Source of the DNA: Promethearchaeota archaeon
GTDB lineage: Archaea > Asgardarchaeota > Lokiarchaeia > Sigyniarchaeales > Promethearchaeaceae
NCBI GenBank assembly: GCA_004524545.1
Contig: SDNX01000005.1
Location: 1-54,115 of the forward strand
Length of the DNA: 54,115 nt
Direction: 5' to 3'
Shown here: positions 6,283 through 43,676 of the stretch, in pieces
How the letters are laid out: the number at the start of each line of letters is the position of its first letter
Numbering within the stretch: position 1 is the first letter of the stretch
Notes under the pieces: generated by a model
What the model was told of the DNA's origin: nothing
Database searches by the model: none
What the model saw: the letters and a program-made list of their open reading frames with translations, nothing else
Program-made: the position numbers and the translations under genes

Positions 6283-7071
6283 GTGGGAGTACTCAAAGAA
6301 CTCAAACTTAAGGATCTGGTTACACTTCTTGGAACTTCCTGTGGGATCATGTCGATTATTCTGACAATCGATGGGAGATATCTTTGGGCAGCGGCAGCAT
6401 TCATCTATTTTTCAATGGTCTTTGATTTGCTAGATGGTATAGTTGCAAAACGGATGAACCAAGCCAATGAGTTGGGTAAAATCCTAGATTCTATGAGCGA
6501 TTTGCTATGTTTCGGAATTGCTCCGGCGGTCTTGATGTACAGAGCATATACTGGGGGGGGTGCATTTCCTCCATTTGCATTGATGCTATTTTGTGCGATA
6601 TTCATTATTGGAGCTATTTTAAGATTAACATGGTTTAGTATCAGTGAGAATAAAGGATATGAGGGTGTGACAACACCAGTTACATCGTCTTTAATTCTTA
6701 CTTTATTTTTCATTGATACCTTTTATGGATATTTTCCAGATTCTGGATCTCTTTTGGGAGAGATTATGAAGTATATAATACCAATATGTATGTTAATTCT
6801 TCCATATCTAAATGTAAGTCGTTTTTTTGTGTATGGGGAGGGTGTACGTGCCAGAGAAAATAAGAGAATCACCTTTTTCTTGTTTTTAATTATGGGATTC
6901 GGCTTAATTTCGTCAATTCTCACATTTTTTAACCATGAAATTACTGGACTATACATATATGTTCTGTGTGTTTCAATTGCAGTAATGCTTTTCTTCTATC
7001 TTGGAATTGGTATATTAAACTACATTAAAAGAAAAAAAGAAATGACTAAAAGTAATTGCATAATTGATTAA
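6283..7071 (+). CDS. pssA: CDP-alcohol phosphatidyltransferase, archaetidylserine synthase-like
   Basis: This integral membrane enzyme would transfer a phospho-alcohol group from CDP-archaeol to serine or a similar alcohol in polar lipid synthesis. The family motif D-x2-D-G-x2-A-R-x8-G-x3-D-x3-D is present as DLLDGIVAKRMNQANELGKI followed by LDSMSD (about residues 48-73), with Lys in place of the usual Arg. About eight hydrophobic helices follow. The N-terminus (LKLKDLVTLLGTSCGIMSI) fits the PssA branch (COG1183) better than PgsA. Start is GTG with GGTGG a few bases upstream. The last codons run into repeat element 1, whose first bases supply the TAA stop, so the native C-terminus may have been slightly altered. 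Confidence 0.8.
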   Translation: MGVLKELKLKDLVTLLGTSCGIMSIILTIDGRYLWAAAAFIYFSMVFDLLDGIVAKRMNQANELGKILDSMSDLLCFGIAPAVLMYRAYTGGGAFPPFALMLFCAIFIIGAILRLTWFSISENKGYEGVTTPVTSSLILTLFFIDTFYGYFPDSGSLLGEIMKYIIPICMLILPYLNVSRFFVYGEGVRARENKRITFFLFLIMGFGLISSILTFFNHEITGLYIYVLCVSIAVMLFFYLGIGILNYIKRKKEMTKSNCIID

Positions 7072-7298
7072 TCAATATGTATCTAAGCCCTTAAAGGCTG
7101 GATTGTCAATAACACCATGTATTTTTCACGTATTTCTACGACCAACGTCAATAACCGCATTTTTGGAAAAACTCATATAGACCATAGGGTTTAGGCACTC
7201 CTACGCTAAAAAGCACCTTTCTATCTCTTTCAGAAAGGCTTTTTAGCGTAGTGCTATGAGAAATAGGCTATTCCAAAGAGTAGGGTAGATCTTGATTA
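7069..7298 (+). mobile_element. MITE-like element, copy 1 (TAATCAA family)
   Basis: A 230-bp element (including flanking TA) with ends TAATCAATATGTATCT on the left and GATCTTGATTA on the right, which are inverted repeats of each other over about 15 bp. The core has a long hairpin: TACGCTAAAAAGC (7202-7214) and its exact complement GCTTTTTAGCGTA (7238-7250), with an inner CCTTTCT/AGAAAGG stem. Two more copies occur at 11026-11265 (reverse) and 43062-43279. No ORF fits inside, so it would need a transposase supplied elsewhere. Insertion is at TA, as for IS630/Tc1-type elements. Its left end provides the stop codon of pssA. Confidence 0.85.
7202..7250 (+). repeat. Perfect hairpin inside element copy 1
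   Basis: A 13-bp perfect inverted repeat (TACGCTAAAAAGC / GCTTTTTAGCGTA) plus a 7-bp inner stem, total about 20 bp of stem. Flanking GCACT and AGTGC extend it with a small bulge. The same hairpin with minor changes occurs in the other two copies, so it is conserved within the family. Sited just after pssA, it could also end transcription. Confidence 0.8.
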
Positions 7299-11025: not shown

Positions 11026-11265
11026 TAATCAAGATCTACCCTACTCTTTGGAATATCCTATTTCTCATAGCACTACGCTAAAAAGCCTTTCTGAGTGGGA
11101 TAGAAAGGTGCTTTTTATCGTAGGAGCACCTAATACCCATGGTAACCTAAAAGGTCGGTTGATTTTACGTTGGATGTTGTCGTTGACGTTCGATGTAAAA
11201 ATACGTTAAAAACAAGTGGTTTACGTTACCAACGGAGCCTTAAGAACTCAGAAAGATGTTGATTA
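11026..11265 (-). mobile_element. MITE-like element, copy 3 (reverse orientation)
   Basis: A 240-bp copy of the TAATCAA-family element in reverse orientation. Plus-strand ends are TAATCAAGATCTACC (left) and GATGTTGATTA (right). It shares a long near-identical block with copy 1, from the GATCTACCCTACTC end through the hairpin, and the GAGTTCTTAAGGCTCCGTT block with copy 2. The hairpin carries one mismatch (GCTTTTTATCGTA). It fills the space between two convergent genes without disturbing either. Confidence 0.85.
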
Positions 11266-36934: not shown

Positions 36935-37945
36935 ATGAGAGAAAAAACGATTGATCTAGGAAATTGCCTAGTAATTGGCGGTTCAGGAATGCTGGGAATG
37001 CAATTAGTCAAGCAATTAAGACAACAAGGATATCCAGTTACATCTCTAGACTTAGACCCAATGCAATTCGATGGTGCAATCCCTATAATCGGCGATATTC
37101 GTAATATTTCCGACATCGAAAAAGCCTGCGAAGGAATTGATACCATATTCCAGACAGCCAGTATTATTTGGGACCCTAAGTTAGCCGATTCGGTATACTA
37201 TGATACAAATGTGAAAGGTAACCAAAATGTTATAGATGTCTGCAAAAAACTCCGAATTCCTCGATTGATATATACTTCGACTCTGGATGTGCTTGTAGAT
37301 GGGTACAAACCTATTTCAGATGGAAATGATGAGATGTCTTATCCATCCAAGATGCCAAAAGATCCTTATTCCCGAACGAAAATTTTAGCGGAGAAAGCCG
37401 TATTAGAAGCGAACAATCCGAAAGAAGGACTATTCACATGTTCCTTACGACCGGTTGGAATCTATGGTCCGGGAGATAAATATCATATTGGTAACCTCGT
37501 TACAATGGCAAGAAATAATCTGAAAGTGAAATTAGGAAATGGTTCCGCTCGATTCAGTTTCGTCTATGTAGAAAATGTAGCTCATGCACATATTGAGGCT
37601 GCAAAACAATTGCATGATGAATCTCGAGTTCCAGGAAACGCTTATATTATTTCGGATTCGACCCCACCTTCGAATTTCTTCCTTTTTCTAAATGAATATT
37701 TGAAGGCATTTTCGCTTCCTCCTTTAACAAAGTCGATTCCAGGAGGATTAGCATTTGGAATTGCGGGAATCGCAGAAATTTTTGCGCCCAAAGCAAAATT
37801 CAATAGGTTTTCTGTAGCCCAGACTTGTAGAGACCACGTTTTTATAGGAACTAAAGCAGAAACAGACTTTGGGTACACTCCTATTGTCTCACAAGAAGAA
37901 GCTTTCACTCGCACGGTAGATTGGTTCAAAAAAAATTGGATATGA
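36935..37945 (+). CDS. NAD(P)-dependent epimerase/3-beta-HSD-like SDR
   Basis: A 336-residue extended short-chain dehydrogenase/reductase. The Rossmann motif is NCLVIGGSGMLGMQLVKQL (GGxGxxG, about residues 8-26), the catalytic YxxxK is YSRTKILAEKAV (about 148-159) with a preceding TSTLDVL, and RPVGIYGPGD is the typical substrate-side motif. The look is that of 3-beta-hydroxysteroid dehydrogenase/isomerase-like members rather than sugar epimerases, but substrate is not predictable. It is the last gene of the ferredoxin operon. The pairing of an SDR with two ferredoxins hints at ferredoxin-linked redox chemistry on a lipid-like or cyclic alcohol (inference). Confidence 0.8.
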   Translation: MREKTIDLGNCLVIGGSGMLGMQLVKQLRQQGYPVTSLDLDPMQFDGAIPIIGDIRNISDIEKACEGIDTIFQTASIIWDPKLADSVYYDTNVKGNQNVIDVCKKLRIPRLIYTSTLDVLVDGYKPISDGNDEMSYPSKMPKDPYSRTKILAEKAVLEANNPKEGLFTCSLRPVGIYGPGDKYHIGNLVTMARNNLKVKLGNGSARFSFVYVENVAHAHIEAAKQLHDESRVPGNAYIISDSTPPSNFFLFLNEYLKAFSLPPLTKSIPGGLAFGIAGIAEIFAPKAKFNRFSVAQTCRDHVFIGTKAETDFGYTPIVSQEEAFTRTVDWFKKNWI

Positions 37946-37982
37946 TATTTTCTTGTAAACTTATTTATCTACATACATATAG

Positions 37983-38228
37983 GTTCAAGAACACGGGGTA
38001 GGAATCTTCCAGTTGGACTACGTTCCCGTACTTCTTACTTACCTATTCTACATCTGTTCGGGGTATTTAAACAAATCATCATGTGTTACTAATCGTGCTA
38101 CGTATCCATCGTGATATTGGATCGTGATTTATCGTAAAATTTTCGATTTTACACGTTTGATACCGTTTCACGATGGGTTTAAATTGAAGGAATGGTTTGT
38201 ATGATCCATTCAACAGAATAAGTGTTGA
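37983..38228 (+). repeat. Dispersed repeat family 2, copy A
   Basis: A 246-bp sequence matching 42558-42893 in several long blocks: GTTCAAGAACAC, CTTCTTACTTACCTATTCTA, ATCGTAAAATTTTCGATTTT and TTTAAATTGAAGGAATGGT. No ORF is conserved between copies. It contains a nested stem-loop (38106-38176). It fills most of the 480-bp gap between the SDR operon and the HEPN/MNT pair. Confidence 0.8.
38106..38176 (+). repeat. Nested stem-loop in repeat copy A
   Basis: The outer arms CCATCGTGA (38106-38114) and TCACGATGG (38168-38176) are exact complements, and an inner hairpin GTAAAAT/ATTTTAC encloses the loop TTTCG. Copy B has the same design with one mismatch in the outer arm (CCATCGGGA). Conservation of a two-level fold suggests an RNA structure or a recombination/protein-binding site. 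Confidence 0.6.
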
Positions 38229-38319
38229 CGGGGTAAATTCCAGATCACTAACGAATAGATTACAAGAAATGGAAGATATTGGCATTCTCAATTCCAATAG
38301 GATGAAAAATTTATTTTAA
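38186..38319 (+). pseudogene. Fragment of a winged-helix regulator gene
   Basis: The plus strand reads GLYDPFNRISVDGVNSRSLT then NRLQEMEDIGILNSNRMKNL to a TAA. The S-x-x-L-x-x-R-L-x-E-x-E-x-x-G-I pattern is the recognition helix and wing start of HxlR/MarR-type regulators. The part before is lost in repeat sequence with stops. Copy B of the repeat ends in a related short reading (DDQFSRIDVD), so the repeat boundary lies inside this old gene. Confidence 0.35.
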
Positions 38320-38427
38320 TTTTTAATTGAATTCCCATAAATACAATTTTTAACTTCTACTCATTTTCACCCATGAAACGACATACACACATAAATAAAT
38401 TAGGATATTTTTCTTTATCTATATATA

Positions 38428-38823
38428 ATGGGACTCTCAAAAACTGATCAACAATTATTAGATACATTTCTGCAAGAAATTTTGCTTGATCAGAGAATAA
38501 TTGGCGTATTCCGTTTTGGTAGTTCGGTTACTAATAACTCCTATAATGATATTGATATAGCTTTAATTACAGAGCCCATTTTTTCCTCTCAAGCCAAGTT
38601 TGACATGAAACTACAATCTCCTGATAGGATTGATGTTTCCTTTTTGGAAGATTTCCCTTTAGATATTGCTAAAAATGTGATTAAAGGATCTCTAATTGTG
38701 AACAGGAATAAAGACAGAGTTTTTGATATCGTTGTTGATATTATTAAAAGATGGGAGGACTTCAAACCAATGTGGGACCTCTATGTGGATGTGTCAATAA
38801 ATGGCTTTGGAGAGAATCGTTAG
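38428..38823 (+). CDS. mntA: MNT-type nucleotidyltransferase antitoxin
   Basis: A 131-residue minimal nucleotidyltransferase. The active-site motif is FRFGSSVTNNSYNDIDIALI (about residues 30-49), GS followed by DxD, slightly shorter than the usual GSx9-10DxD spacing. In type VII toxin-antitoxin systems MntA adds AMP to a Tyr of the HEPN toxin and silences it. The partner gene overlaps by 23 bp, as expected. A TATA-like CTATATATAA lies immediately before the ATG, perhaps too close to be the promoter; another AT-rich box lies about 30 bp upstream. Located in a repeat-rich accessory zone. Confidence 0.85.
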   Translation: MGLSKTDQQLLDTFLQEILLDQRIIGVFRFGSSVTNNSYNDIDIALITEPIFSSQAKFDMKLQSPDRIDVSFLEDFPLDIAKNVIKGSLIVNRNKDRVFDIVVDIIKRWEDFKPMWDLYVDVSINGFGENR

Positions 38824-39205
38824 ACGAATAGATATATTGGTTGCAAGCTTACGCAAAATTGAGAAGTGGCTTCCCGATACAAAAGAAGAATTTGAACTAA
38901 ATGAAATTATGCAAGCCGCTATCGAAAGGAGTTTACAAGTCTCTATAGAAGCAATTCTTGATATTTGCATACAACTTGTGAAATTATTAGAATTAGGTAC
39001 TCCGAATTCTCCTGAAAATGTAATTCAATTGCTGAAACCACACTTATCCTCTATTAAAACTATAGAAGAATTGAAAAAACTCAGAAATGTTTTAGTTCAT
39101 CAATATTCTGATATTGAAATCACACTAGTTTATAATTACGCAAAAAGTTTCATCAACGACGGGACAAAATTAGTTGGAGAATTTAAAGATTTACTAAAAA
39201 AATGA
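38801..39205 (+). CDS. hepT: HEPN-domain toxin (HepT)
   Basis: A 134-residue all-helical HEPN RNase-type toxin. The catalytic motif RNVLVHQY (Rx4HxY, about residues 97-104) is intact, with the Tyr that MntA modifies. Other family features include IERSLQVSIEAILDICIQLV. HepT cleaves RNA (tRNA in some systems) unless AMPylated by MntA. It overlaps the mntA gene by 23 bp, indicating co-translation. The pair looks fully functional, unlike the neighbouring VapBC locus. Confidence 0.88.
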   Translation: MALERIVRRIDILVASLRKIEKWLPDTKEEFELNEIMQAAIERSLQVSIEAILDICIQLVKLLELGTPNSPENVIQLLKPHLSSIKTIEELKKLRNVLVHQYSDIEITLVYNYAKSFINDGTKLVGEFKDLLKK

Positions 39206-39230
39206 TCTCTATTAATCAAATTATCTGTTC

Positions 39231-39628
39231 TTGTTTTGGATTTCGGAAGACCTCTACTGGAAGTTCCCACTCCGCTCTTTAGTTGAAATGTCATGAATCC
39301 TGTGGCAGCTCCTATAGATCCCTCTTCAACCCGATCAGAACAATTTGCATTCTTTATGGCTTCAAATACATGTTTTATACGTGACATGACGACCTTGAAT
39401 ATCATTCAAGTAGGAATCATTACATTCGGTTACTAAAGCTGATAAAATTGCTGATATTCCTGTACGAATGGGACCTTTTCTTGGTTTTAAAATGCCTGAT
39501 CCAGAAATTATGGTGCTATGACCCACTTTTAACCCGTTTACGTCCATAATGGAATTAGTTGGTCCCGGTTGAAAGTTTCCACATTCCCATCCTTTAGTGC
39601 GAATAAAGTCTTTAGATGATTTGATCAT
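39231..39628 (-). pseudogene. Broken P1-family (DmpA-like) aminopeptidase gene
   Basis: Two overlapping minus-strand ORFs are pieces of a DmpA-like peptidase. The first (39628 to 39362) opens with the N-terminal signature NSIMDVNGLKVGHSTIISG and GPIRTGISAIL, then jumps to ECNDSYLNDIQGRHV, which in intact members lies about 100 residues later. The second ORF (from 39405, different frame) continues with HVFEAIKNANCSDRVEEGSI and GAATGFMTFQLKSGVGTSSR and then ends in unrelated residues. So there is an internal deletion, a frameshift and loss of the C-terminal half with the catalytic Ser. It lies between hepT and an MFS gene. Confidence 0.75.
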
Positions 39629-39723
39629 GCTTGCATTAGGGTAGGGAAGAAAAATTAATAGGGGTTTGGATCACCCCAAAAAAACTAGAATCATAGTCTA
39701 TATTCAATTTTCAATACAATTGT

Positions 39724-41013
39724 TCAGGGAAGTTTAAAATCACCATCTAATGCTTTTGAAACCTTAGTGAACAACCATATGCATTGCACAAACAGGAACG
39801 CAATACTTGCTGAAAGAATCCATAGCAATTTCACTCCAACAAGATTCTCTAAAGTTCCAGACAAAATGATGCCCAAAGGAGAAATTAAGCCCGATATTGA
39901 AATTAAGATGGAAAATATTCGTCCTTGGTATTCCTGAGGAATTTTTTGTTGCATTGAGGTTATAATAGTGGAGTTCAAAATAGGAAAGGTTAAACCTGCA
40001 ATAAACAATCCACTACTCATTAAGGGATACATTCCCGATGGACTGAAACTTAATATTAAATATCCAATAAACTGAAGAGTTAAGAGGAAATACGTGAGTC
40101 TTGTTTTATTTTTCCACTCTTTCTTTAAGGTGCTGATAAGGGATCCTAGCAGTAAACCTACTTTTAAAGCTCCCATTAAGATAGCCAACTCGTCTTCTGT
40201 GCCTTGATTGGTCACATTGACATAATAGGGGAGGAGAGTGTTGAAAGGCATAATAAAGAGATTTAGGATAGATGCAGTAAAGAGCAATATCATGAACGGT
40301 CGATTGCTTGATAATAGATCGAATCCGGCCTTTATTTTAGAGAAATAATCCCGTATTCCCTTTTTTTGCTTGGATTTTGGTTGGGATTCTAATTTCGGAA
40401 TAGAAAGAAATAACAAGGGAATCAAGGCAAAGACGAATGTTATTAAATCTACGAATAAGATTTGGTAGAACGTAAAGAATTTCAGTAATAATGCAGCAAA
40501 TGCGGGTCCTGCGATGGCTACTATACTTGATAACAAATAATCGATTCCATTTAATCGAGATAATCTATCTTTAGGGACCATTGAGGAAACAATGGCGGCT
40601 TTTGAAGGAGATTGAACCGTCTGAAACACTGAACGCAGAGCTAATATGATGAAAAACAAGGTGTAATTCATAAAATTAAACATTAATCCTGCAATTATGA
40701 TTGTAGTTACCGCTGCTTGAAGCAGATCTGAATAGATGATGATTTTTTGTCGATCAAATTTATCCGCTAATACTCCCATAAATGGACTTAATATGATTTG
40801 TGGTAAGAATCCCAGAAATGCAGCAAAAGAAAGGTACATACTGCTTTGAGTTTCGGTGGTTATCCACCAAATCATGGTAAATTGCACTATTGAGGAACCA
40901 AGTAAGGATAAGATTTGTCCAATCCATATGACAATGTATTGACGAAATGTTTTTATCGTGGGTACTTGGGACGGTTTTAATGTTTTAGAGAGTTGTGAAG
41001 TCATGCTATACAC
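39724..41013 (-). CDS. MFS permease, MFS_3/EntS-like
   Basis: A 429-residue twelve-helix MFS permease of the MFS_3 (EntS/macrolide-efflux-like) branch. The opening FRQYIVIWIGQILSLLGSSI followed by VQFTMIWWI and the loop SPFMGVLADKFDRQKIII (about residues 76-93) are characteristic; a later marker is SKAAIVSSMVPKDRLSRLNG (about 130-150). Members commonly export siderophores or drugs. Translation probably begins at MTSQLSK (fourth codon) or the first Met. It is divergent from the ArsR-like regulator across 330 bp containing an inverted repeat, so control by that regulator is likely (inference). Confidence 0.85.
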   Translation of the reverse strand: MYSMTSQLSKTLKPSQVPTIKTFRQYIVIWIGQILSLLGSSIVQFTMIWWITTETQSSMYLSFAAFLGFLPQIILSPFMGVLADKFDRQKIIIYSDLLQAAVTTIIIAGLMFNFMNYTLFFIILALRSVFQTVQSPSKAAIVSSMVPKDRLSRLNGIDYLLSSIVAIAGPAFAALLLKFFTFYQILFVDLITFVFALIPLLFLSIPKLESQPKSKQKKGIRDYFSKIKAGFDLLSSNRPFMILLFTASILNLFIMPFNTLLPYYVNVTNQGTEDELAILMGALKVGLLLGSLISTLKKEWKNKTRLTYFLLTLQFIGYLILSFSPSGMYPLMSSGLFIAGLTFPILNSTIITSMQQKIPQEYQGRIFSILISISGLISPLGIILSGTLENLVGVKLLWILSASIAFLFVQCIWLFTKVSKALDGDFKLP

Positions 41014-41260
41014 GTTTTTTAGTTTTTGGGATATTTTGACTGTCTTTTTTGGAAATGTATTAGTGCTGTTGTTTTATTTATAAAAATGGGTTGATTTTTA
41101 GTAGTTTTTATTTTCTTTGATTTTGTTTTCGTATTTTCGAATTGTATCCATCATGTAATCGTTCATGTATTGTTACCTCCGTTTTCGATTATTGGTTGGG
41201 TTACGAATTCGGGATTATCGATATTTTCGAAACCATGATCTAATGTAGGCTAATTTCATA
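41014..41260. other. Divergent intergenic region, MFS gene to regulator
   Basis: About 250 bp, T-rich on the plus strand, without a convincing ORF. It carries several TTTTCGA/TTCGAA half sites (for example around 41134-41141 and 41225-41232) resembling the inverted repeat nearer the regulator. The MFS promoter must lie in it or in the adjoining inverted repeat. Confidence 0.4.
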
Positions 41261-41266
41261 TATAAA

Positions 41267-41314
41267 TATTTCGGAAAGTTGACTTTTTACGAATTCGATA
41301 TTCTTCCGAAAATA
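41267..41314. promoter_or_regulatory. Inverted repeat operator candidate before ArsR-like gene
   Basis: TATTTCGGAA (41267-41276) is matched by TTCCGAAAATA (41304-41314), an almost exact inverted repeat with a 27-bp spacer. The right arm runs into the TATA-like box AATATAAATA (41311-41320), so a protein bound here would block transcription start. Mirror TATA-like AT runs on the left side would serve the divergent MFS gene. Confidence 0.55.
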
Positions 41315-41320
41315 TAAATA
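41311..41320 (+). promoter_or_regulatory. TATA-like box for the ArsR-like gene
   Basis: AATATAAATA centred about 28 bp before GTG 41344, the spacing of a leaderless archaeal transcript. It supports GTG 41344 as the start rather than ATG 41353. Confidence 0.55.
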
Positions 41321-41343
41321 CCTAACTAGCCATATTATGATAT

Positions 41344-42090
41344 GTGAGAACAATGTCTGGACGGAATCGTGAAGAAACTCGAAAAAAACTCTGGAAAATG
41401 ATACAAAATAAAGCTAAGGTTCAGATATTCAATGCATTTGAGATGTATGGGCGTATGTCATTAACAGAACTAGCAGAACGGCTAAATAAAAGCAAAAGCA
41501 CCATACATTCACATCTAAAATTTTTAATAAAGGATCTGGGTATTATCAAAAAAGAACGAGTACCATTAGAGTCTAATCCCAATGTTTATGAGAATTATTA
41601 TGAATTCTCGGATAATGCAAATGAAATTTTTCGAGAAATCGATATGGAATTTAAACCATTTACAAAATTCTCAAGTGAAGAAGTTGAAGAGCTGATTAAC
41701 CCAGCAATTTCGATGAACAAATTAATCAAGTCATATTTCGAAACTCAAATTCGTTTTTTTGAAGCTATTCGAGAGTCGGGTTTCGATGATGAAGCAGTGA
41801 ACCATTTCAACAAGATGATCTCCTGGGTGGAAGATAAAAACGGCAAACCTATATTGTTATCCCGGAACACAAATTCGACTAATTTCTTATCGGAGCGAGA
41901 ATACTTCAAAGAGATGAGAAGAATCTTCCAAATTGAACAATTAAAGGATATAGATTTTGATGCATTGTTCAAAGAACAAGAAAAAGAGTCTGAAATCGGT
42001 AATCCTATGCTAATTATCAAAGCCACAATGCCATATGGGTTCATTCTGGAGTATTTAAATAAACAGAAGAAAAAGGCCTACCGAGTATAA
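41344..42090 (+). CDS. ArsR-like winged-helix transcription regulator
   Basis: A 248-residue regulator. Residues about 20-85 form a winged helix: VQIFNAFEMYGRMSLTELAE then RLNKSKSTIHSHLKFLIKDL, the recognition helix being STIHSHLKFL, followed by a wing. The remaining 160 residues are mostly helical and acidic, with no obvious metal site, and probably sense a ligand or dimerise. Starts at GTG 41344 (leaderless from the TATA-like box) or ATG 41353. It is divergent from an MFS exporter and follows an inverted repeat, a classic local-regulator arrangement; self-regulation is likely. Confidence 0.8.
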   Translation: MRTMSGRNREETRKKLWKMIQNKAKVQIFNAFEMYGRMSLTELAERLNKSKSTIHSHLKFLIKDLGIIKKERVPLESNPNVYENYYEFSDNANEIFREIDMEFKPFTKFSSEEVEELINPAISMNKLIKSYFETQIRFFEAIRESGFDDEAVNHFNKMISWVEDKNGKPILLSRNTNSTNFLSEREYFKEMRRIFQIEQLKDIDFDALFKEQEKESEIGNPMLIIKATMPYGFILEYLNKQKKKAYRV

Positions 42091-42145
42091 TTGCATTTAT
42101 TTTCTGAATGACCAAATTAAATCAAGTTTATTTCTATGGCATTTC

Positions 42146-42427
42146 ATGGCACAGAAAAATTGGTTATATCCTCCCGAGGGATTGGGAGTAGATGAGACTT
42201 TTGCATTAATGGAGAAATCCGCCCGAATGGTAATAAATAAGGATAAGGAATATCCAACCCAAAAATTCAGAGGCTTTGGTTCAATAGGAAAAGCAGTCTA
42301 TTTTAATAGGATTTTTCCATTCAGATTTGCTAGATTGTTTAAAGCGAGAAAAGGGCAGATTTTAGGAGGAGCAGTCAGCCGAGTAGGTATACTGTTGATT
42401 AGTCAACATCTATTCCGTGATATCTAA
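42146..42427 (+). CDS. Small hypothetical protein
   Basis: A 93-residue protein that I do not recognise. It starts polar (MAQKNWLYPPEGLGVDETFA), has a basic middle (FNRIFPFRFARLFKARKGQ) and a short hydrophobic end (GAVSRVGILLISQHLF). It follows the ArsR-like gene by 55 bp on the same strand and may be co-transcribed. It is directly followed by hairpin repeats and repeat copy B, so it may be the N-terminal remnant of a longer gene cut by repeat accumulation. Confidence 0.45.
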   Translation: MAQKNWLYPPEGLGVDETFALMEKSARMVINKDKEYPTQKFRGFGSIGKAVYFNRIFPFRFARLFKARKGQILGGAVSRVGILLISQHLFRDI

Positions 42428-42438
42428 ATTTTCCCTTT

Positions 42439-42531
42439 CTATCCTAACGGAGGTATATAGTACGAAGTGCCATCCATTTGGTGTACCATTCTATCCTAAC
42501 GGATAGGTTACGCATCTATCCTATCGGATAG
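42439..42531 (+). repeat. Tandem short hairpins CTATCCTAWCGGATAG
   Basis: Two near-identical 16-bp hairpins, CTATCCTAACGGATAG (42491-42506) and CTATCCTATCGGATAG (42516-42531), 9 bp apart, with a half copy CTATCCTAACGG at 42439-42450. Each is a 6-bp perfect stem with a 4-base loop. A further CCGATAGG lies near 42568. Spacing of about 25 bp between hairpins suits binding of a dimeric protein on one face, or they may end the upstream transcript. Confidence 0.6.
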
Positions 42532-42557
42532 AATGCCTCATGCTACGCATTCGGCGT

Positions 42558-42893
42558 GTTCAAGAACACCGATAGGGATCTTTCAATTGGACGACGTTCC
42601 CGCACTTCTTACTTACCTATTCTACATCTGTTCGGGTCATGATGTGTTACCCCTCCACTTTCATCCAAGAACCCCCTATCCTACCATCCGAACTACCAAA
42701 CCCGAACTACGAACTTAACCTTATACAATCTGTTCGGCGTATTTAAACAAATCACGATGTGTTACCTATCCATCGGGATATTGGATCGTAATTTATCGTA
42801 AAATTTTCGATTTTACACGTTTGACCCTGTTTCACGATGGTTTTAAATTGAAGGAATGGTATGGATGATCAATTCAGCAGAATAGATGTTGAC
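42558..42893 (+). repeat. Dispersed repeat family 2, copy B
   Basis: A 336-bp relative of copy A (37983-38228), longer because the CTGTTCGG...GATGTGTTAC segment is partly duplicated, with about 90 bp of C- and A-rich filler (CCCGAACTACGAAC) between. The nested stem-loop is retained at 42770-42840. The 61-residue track ORF in it is not conserved in copy A. The repeat ends 2 bp before the vapB-like start codon, so its right end may provide the promoter. Confidence 0.75.
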
Positions 42894-42895
42894 TA

Positions 42896-43036
42896 ATGAA
42901 AAATTTGAGAGAGTGGTATGAATCAAGCACCTTTGAATTAATGACAGATGAAGAAGCAAAAGAAATGAATAAAGCAGTGAGTGAATTTCGAGCGAATTTT
43001 CGTCCTAATGAGGTAAATTTAGATGATTCTAGTTGA
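42896..43036 (+). CDS. vapB: VapB-like antitoxin, short
   Basis: A 46-residue ORF below the track cut-off. It reads MKNLREWYESSTFELMTDEE then AKEMNKAVSEFRANFRPNEV, like the toxin-wrapping C-terminal half of a VapB antitoxin. It overlaps the start of the vapC gene (ATG 43023 lies before its TGA), as in normal VapBC operons. Typical VapB proteins are about 70-80 residues with an N-terminal DNA-binding part; that part is absent, replaced upstream by repeat copy B, so this may be a truncated antitoxin. Confidence 0.5.
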   Translation: MKNLREWYESSTFELMTDEEAKEMNKAVSEFRANFRPNEVNLDDSS

Positions 43037-43653
43037 TAACCAGTTACATCGTTGATTTGATTAATCAATATCTATCTGAGTTCTTAAGGCTCCGTTACCC
43101 AAATTATCCATGTAATTTTAACGTATTTTAGCATATAACGTCAATAACGCTATTTTTCCAAAATTCTACCCAACTTATAGGGTTTAGGTGCACCTACGCT
43201 AAAAAAACCTTTTAACGCACTTATGAAAGGCTTTTTAGCGTATTTTTACCTTAGAAAGGAGTAGGATGGTTTTTGATTAGGAAAAAAGTCAAAATCGACT
43301 CAGAATTGGATGAGGAGATCCTTTTTATAACTGAAATTACTGTATATGAACTATATTTTGGATTATTTAGCAACAATATACTCAATAAAGATCCAGAAAA
43401 GTTGCAAAAAAGAATAGATACTCTCTCAAAAATATTAAGCAAATTCCAAATTTTACCATTTAGTAGAGATGAGTCAATCCAATCTGCTAAAATATTAGGA
43501 CAGCTAAAATTAGACAGAAAAACAATTGAATTTCGTGATGGGATGATAGCTGGTAGTAGATTTGCAAATGGAATTACTAAAATCCTGACTCGAAATGCAG
43601 ACCATTTCGATCGAATCCCAGGAATTCAAACAATTACATATGAGCTTCATTAG
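43023..43653 (+). pseudogene. vapC: vapC PIN-domain toxin gene split by a MITE-like element
   Basis: The 5' piece reads MILVD from ATG 43023. After one extra A (GATAACC in place of GATACC) the frame continues TSYIVDLI up to the element at 43062. Downstream of the element, the frame resumes as RKKVKIDSELDEEILFITEI and runs to 43653 (the track ORF). Removing 43064-43279 joins ATT to AGG and restores a complete PIN ribonuclease of about 140 residues with its acidic residues: Asp5, Glu of VYELYFG, Asp of FRDGMIAGSR and Asp of RNADHFDRI. Thus the toxin is inactivated twice: a 1-bp frameshift and a 218-bp insertion. Confidence 0.85.
43062..43279 (+). mobile_element. MITE-like element, copy 2, inside vapC
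   Basis: A 218-bp copy including both TA target duplications (43062-43063 and 43278-43279). Left end TAATCAATATCTATCTGAGT, right end TTTTGATTA, hairpin TACGCTAAAAA / TTTTTAGCGTA retained. The right end has drifted (GGATGG where other copies have GGGTAGATC), so the insertion is not brand new. The flanking frame reconstruction of vapC gives independent proof of the element's boundaries. Confidence 0.88.
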
Positions 43654-43676
43654 GGATCACAATATAAAAAAAGGCA

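What the first reader, a model, noticed from the sequence alone, without database searches (positions are those of the whole stretch)
43023..43653. VapC toxin gene disrupted by the element; in-silico excision restores the PIN protein
Deleting one TA plus the element joins ...GATTTGATT to AGGAAAAAA and gives a continuous VapC sequence (VDLIRKKVKID). This proves element boundaries and TA duplication from coding logic. An extra A in the MILVDT codon run is a second, independent inactivation, so the toxin was lost twice or died first and then was a safe landing site.
Basis: seen in the sequence. Interest (0 to 1): 0.8.

Follow-up and report, generated by a model that had tools for sequence, protein, structure and literature searches.

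The report
Archaeal vapBC operon broken by MITEs
In a Loki-type Asgard archaeon, a toxin-antitoxin gene pair is a relic: one small non-coding transposable element splits the toxin gene, a second one sits where the front half of the antitoxin gene should be, and the toxin also carries a one-base frameshift; this is ordinary gene decay by an apparently undescribed but conventional family of mini-transposons.

Summary
A VapC (PIN) gene starts at 43023, is interrupted by a 218-bp element (43062-43279, TA at both ends) and resumes at 43280 to 43653. Fourteen intact Asgard VapCs read D-x-[LF]-R-K where the window's left piece ends D-L-I and the right piece begins R-K-K. An extra base shifts the frame between MILVD and TSYIVDLI. 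The element is a MITE: seven more copies in the genome share its ends. The operon has at least three lesions and lies in a 5.7-kb stretch absent from the same-genus genome. 'Proves TA duplication' is too strong: an 8-bp direct repeat (TTTGATTA) flanks this copy; other copies support TA. A 'safe landing site' is not needed: the site fits the family's T-tract...TA...A-tract target preference. No transposase carrying these ends was found. Verdict: real, explained, new member of a known kind (archaeal MITEs in a dead vapBC pair); modest interest.

The parts
42400..42895 (+). MITE e2 (496 bp including both TAs), terminal repeat TAGTCAACATCTATTC, directly upstream of the vapB remnant
   Evidence: 21-nt inverted repeat 42395-42415/42880-42900 at 95%; two exact TIR matches; end-to-end relative of G001:C16:252920-253338, ends coincide
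42146..42399 (+). 5' fragment (about 85 codons) of an unidentified gene, cut off at the left end of e2
   Evidence: 63% identical paralogue G000:C4:8800-9045 lies in a 313-aa open frame; the remaining part is not in the window
42896..43033 (+). vapB remnant: C-terminal half (residues ~40-82 of about 82); N-terminal, presumably DNA-binding, half missing
   Evidence: tblastn of intact VapB L021 residues 40-77 onto 42899-43009, 32% identity, E 0.033, directly upstream of vapC as in intact operons
43023..43061 (+). vapC 5' fragment, with a 1-bp insertion separating MILVD and TSYIVDLI
   Evidence: three-frame reading against 14 intact homologues
43062..43279 (+). MITE e1 (218 bp including both TAs; 216 bp net) inside vapC
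   Evidence: TIR arms 43062-43085/43256-43279; seven other copies in the genome, with shared ends in the alignment; copies in same-genus G001
43280..43653 (+). vapC 3' fragment with three of the four PIN acidic positions (identified by eye); open frame runs back to a TTG at 43273 inside e1
   Evidence: PF01850 E 2.4e-9, profile 25-118; 53% identity to intact VapC in G006
37983..38229 (+). partial, decayed relative of e2 at the left edge of the island, upstream of an MNT/HepT pair
   Evidence: 82-90% identity to e2 segments
37943..43676 (.). 5.7-kb stretch absent from same-genus genome G001, where the flanking genes are neighbours about 30 bp apart
   Evidence: blastn/tblastn of window ORFs to G001:C24

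Best explanation
This is a dead vapBC toxin-antitoxin operon in a Lokiarchaeia-type genome, broken at least three times. A non-autonomous MITE (e1, 218 bp) inserted at a TA about 13 codons into vapC. A one-base insertion near codon 6 independently shifts the frame. A second MITE of the same terminal-repeat family (e2, 496 bp) now sits where the 5' half of vapB should be; its two flanks are fragments of unrelated genes. That is most simply explained by recombination between two e2 copies, or by a deletion next to e2, removing the DNA between. Shown: the three lesions, the shared element ends, intact relatives, the target-site preference. Inferred: transposition in trans by an unseen transposase, the deletion route, and loss of toxin function.
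For: PIN profile truncated at the N-terminus. Fourteen intact VapCs bridge the junction. Frames of the left piece. Seven other e1-type copies in the genome with shared ends, plus copies in G001 but in none of the other relatives searched. TIR pattern TARTCAAYATCTAT with up to 1 mismatch occurs 28 times in G000 (reversed control 8) and 99 times in G001 (control 12). e2 is end-to-end homologous to a G001 element. Outside 77 element ends, positions -4 to -7 are 79, 86, 68 and 55% T against 33% background, matched on both sides at the vapC site. Only the vapB C-terminal half remains, and the left-hand gene is truncated.
Against: No transposase gene with these ends was found in G000 or G001, so the mobilising system is not identified. 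The right-hand fragment has no internal stop, so continued selection and recency cannot be separated. The genome is a 76%-complete draft, and the 1-bp insertion rests on one assembly. The vapB match is weak on its own (E 0.033).
Confidence: 0.88

Rival explanations
1. The element donates a start for a truncated PIN protein: its right end supplies AAAGGAG and a TTG at 43273, so a shortened VapC is still made, perhaps as an inert partner of the VapB C-terminal half.
For: Open frame 43273-43653 without stops; AAAGGAG lies about 12 nt before the TTG; the VapB C-terminal half is also still open (sequence).
Against: The first strand with the catalytic Asp lies in the left fragment; none of the relatives examined is this short at the N-terminus; the element's right end is only its family terminus.
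Confidence: 0.05
2. The whole locus degenerated first in a decaying island and the MITEs landed later in dead DNA (order reversed; no inactivating role).
For: The island also holds a gutted S58 peptidase and a truncated gene; G001 lacks the island; an independent frameshift exists.
Against: The right-hand fragment has no stop in about 125 codons and keeps the remaining acidic residues, which argues against long decay before insertion.
Confidence: 0.35
3. The 1-bp insertion is a sequencing or assembly error and only the MITEs are real lesions.
For: Draft MAG; only one sequence of this locus is available.
Against: Not in a long homopolymer (GATAACC); many long genes of the contig align to G001 without frameshifts.
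Confidence: 0.12

Closest known systems
VapBC type II toxin-antitoxin (VapC PIN ribonuclease)
   Same: PIN domain, overlapping vapB-vapC order, vapC start inside the vapB end
   Different: This copy lacks the VapB N-terminal half and has a split, frameshifted vapC
Archaeal MITEs of Sulfolobus (SM3A, SMN1; PMC3718332)
   Same: Short, multicopy, no ORF; SM3A in S. islandicus is likewise without a functional cognate transposase
   Different: Different terminal sequence; Asgard host; TA ends with a T-tract/A-tract target; diverse interiors of about 118-496 bp sharing one terminus
Tc1/mariner-IS630 type MITEs
   Same: TA at both ends and short TIRs
   Different: No DDE_3 transposase in this or the same-genus genome; resemblance by ends only

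Membership tests
VapC (PIN, PF01850) | PIN profile match over the cut-off | tested here: met
   38.3 bits against cut-off 23.6, but only profile positions 25-118
VapC (PIN, PF01850) | Intact N-terminal strand with catalytic Asp in one frame | tested here: not met
   Split by e1 and a 1-bp shift; it is a pseudogene of the family
VapBC operon | Upstream VapB with N-terminal DNA-binding and C-terminal toxin-binding halves | tested here: not met
   Only residues ~40-82 remain; the N-terminal half was not found in the window
MITE | Short, multicopy, non-coding, terminal inverted repeats with shared ends | tested here: met
MITE | Target-site duplication (TA) | tested here: inconclusive
   TA at both ends in nearly all copies, but no clean empty orthologous site; this copy has an 8-bp direct repeat
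IS630/Tc1-mariner derived | Cognate DDE transposase with the same ends | tested here: not met
   PF13358 absent from G000 and G001; the only DDE_Tnp_1 gene of G000 and the degraded one of G001 lack these ends

The most novel reading that the evidence does not exclude
A genus-wide MITE family with a palindrome-like target preference (TTTTgat-TA-atcAAAA, resembling its own ends) repeatedly inserts into or beside its own copies and into toxin-antitoxin islands, driving their deletion by copy-copy recombination; the vapBC relic would be one product of that route.
Probability: 0.12. Interest if true: 0.45.

Novelty: new member of a known kind. Interest (0 to 1): 0.27.

Why it matters
It gives a clean example of how a toxin-antitoxin module died in an Asgard archaeon. 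It also exposes a multicopy, internally diverse MITE family defined by one terminal repeat in an archaeal group for which my full-text search found no MITE description. It does not change any general view.

Tried and rejected
Autonomous partner: DDE_3 in G000 and G001 (none), DDE_Tnp_1 (one intact gene at G000:C33, no matching ends), TIR pairs up to 2.6 kb apart with long ORFs (none convincing; the ORFs inside long pairs were not checked against profiles). IS200/IS605-type (TTGAT target, no TIR) considered because TTGAT precedes e1; rejected because the ends are symmetric inverted repeats and most copies lack TTGAT in the flank. Rfam: no match in the window. The same-genus genome as an empty-site control failed because it lacks the whole island. 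MAFFT placed the isolated start of the right piece (KKVKID) on the VapC N-terminus; judged a mis-alignment, since BLAST against L128 starts exactly at RKK.

Full report
Observation. The window's vapC begins at 43023 (ATG overlapping the end of a vapB frame), is interrupted at 43062 and resumes at 43280, ending at 43653. The downstream piece alone is a PIN domain lacking the profile's first 24 positions. In the left piece, frame 0 gives MILVD and the next frame TSYIVDL: one extra base. The two halves were not joined, as the brief asks; each was placed on intact relatives. Fourteen intact VapCs from the phylum, 37-55% identical to the right piece, read D-T/S then D-x-L/F-R/K-K (one has G for the second D) at this spot, e.g. 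VDLLRKD and LIDALRKK. The left piece ends V-D-L-I and the right piece begins R-K-K, so the interruption falls inside a motif that is contiguous in relatives. The segment 10 residues on is 2-3 residues shorter than in relatives; a small in-frame loss cannot be excluded.

The element. 43062-43279 has inverted ends (TAATCAATATCTATCT.../...TTTTTGATTA). Seven more copies, some partial, occur in the genome at 70-82% identity; in the alignment the copies share the ends TAATCAA and TTGATTA. Copies occur in the same-genus genome but in none of the other 57 relatives. The copies examined encode nothing recognisable. Their inner stem (CCTACGCTAAAAAG...CTTTTTAGCGTAG) keeps pairing through changes on both sides at five pairs in 11 copies. 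This is a MITE.

A second element. 42400-42895 has ends TAGTCAACATCTATTC in inverted orientation, the same kind of terminal repeat as e1. It is homologous from first to last base to a 419-bp element of the same-genus genome, so its boundaries are independent of this locus. To its right, starting at the next base, lies ATGAAAAATTTGAGAGAG..., which matches residues 40-77 of intact VapB: VapB has lost its N-terminal half. To its left lies the first ~85 codons of a gene whose paralogue elsewhere in this genome sits in a 313-aa frame. The two flanks do not belong together, so DNA has been lost around e2; recombination between two copies is the simplest route (inference). A decayed relative of e2 lies at 37983-38229.

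Family and target. The terminal pattern TARTCAAYATCTAT (up to one mismatch) is found 28 times in this genome against 8 for the reversed control, and 99 times in the same-genus genome against 12. Interiors differ widely, and paired ends there are mostly 118 to about 430 bp apart. Outside 77 ends, positions -4 to -7 are 55-86% T against 33% background, with A favoured at -2. The vapC site, TTTGAT-TA-GGAAAAAA, fits on both sides; the double-sided pattern TTTNNNTANNNAAA occurs 11 times in the window, the right-hand end of e1 among them. That preference also explains the 8-bp direct repeat TTTGATTA at this copy, so the repeat is not good evidence for an 8-bp duplication; equally, this copy cannot prove a 2-bp one. 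In several places in the other genome two elements abut and share the TA.

Mobilising enzyme. No DDE_3 (IS630 type) gene was found in G000 or G001, although three other genomes of the taxonomic family have it. The one intact DDE_Tnp_1 gene of G000 does not carry these ends. The MITE family may be orphaned, as reported for SM3A in Sulfolobus islandicus LAL14/1 (PMC3718332), or its source may lie in the missing quarter of the genome.

Context. In the same-genus genome the genes flanking 37943-43676 are direct neighbours. The intervening stretch holds an MNT/HepT pair, a gutted S58 peptidase and an MFS transporter, an HTH regulator, the truncated gene, e2 and the vapBC relic: a decaying island. 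Whether vapC died before or after e1 arrived is open; the lack of stops in the right piece argues against long prior decay.

Verdict. The proof of a TA duplication is over-claimed, and the vapB half of the story was missed. Ordinary in kind; the element family appears undescribed in the literature I could search.

Noticed in passing
window 7069-7298: Another e1-type MITE; its first three bases (TAA) form the stop codon of the ORF 6283-7071.
   Followed up: partly
window 11026-11265: Another e1-type MITE, minus orientation, between convergent ORFs.
   Followed up: partly
window 43193-43251 and copies in C44, C144, C82, C89, C40 and G001: Internal hairpin of the e1-type MITEs keeps pairing through compensatory changes (5 pairs); could be a DNA cruciform or RNA structure.
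   Followed up: partly
window 38428-39205: Apparently intact MNT/HepT toxin-antitoxin pair next to a decayed e2 relative.
   Followed up: no
window 39136-39628, minus strand: Peptidase S58 remnant with profile positions 1-31 and 124-170 only, in two frames: a pseudogene.
   Followed up: no
L103, L067, L120 (G001:C27, C35, C13): Pairs of elements abut and share a single TA, suggesting insertion at the end of an existing copy.
   Followed up: partly
G001 contigs C18, C23, C35: Contigs end inside these elements, as expected if near-identical copies broke the assembly.
   Followed up: no
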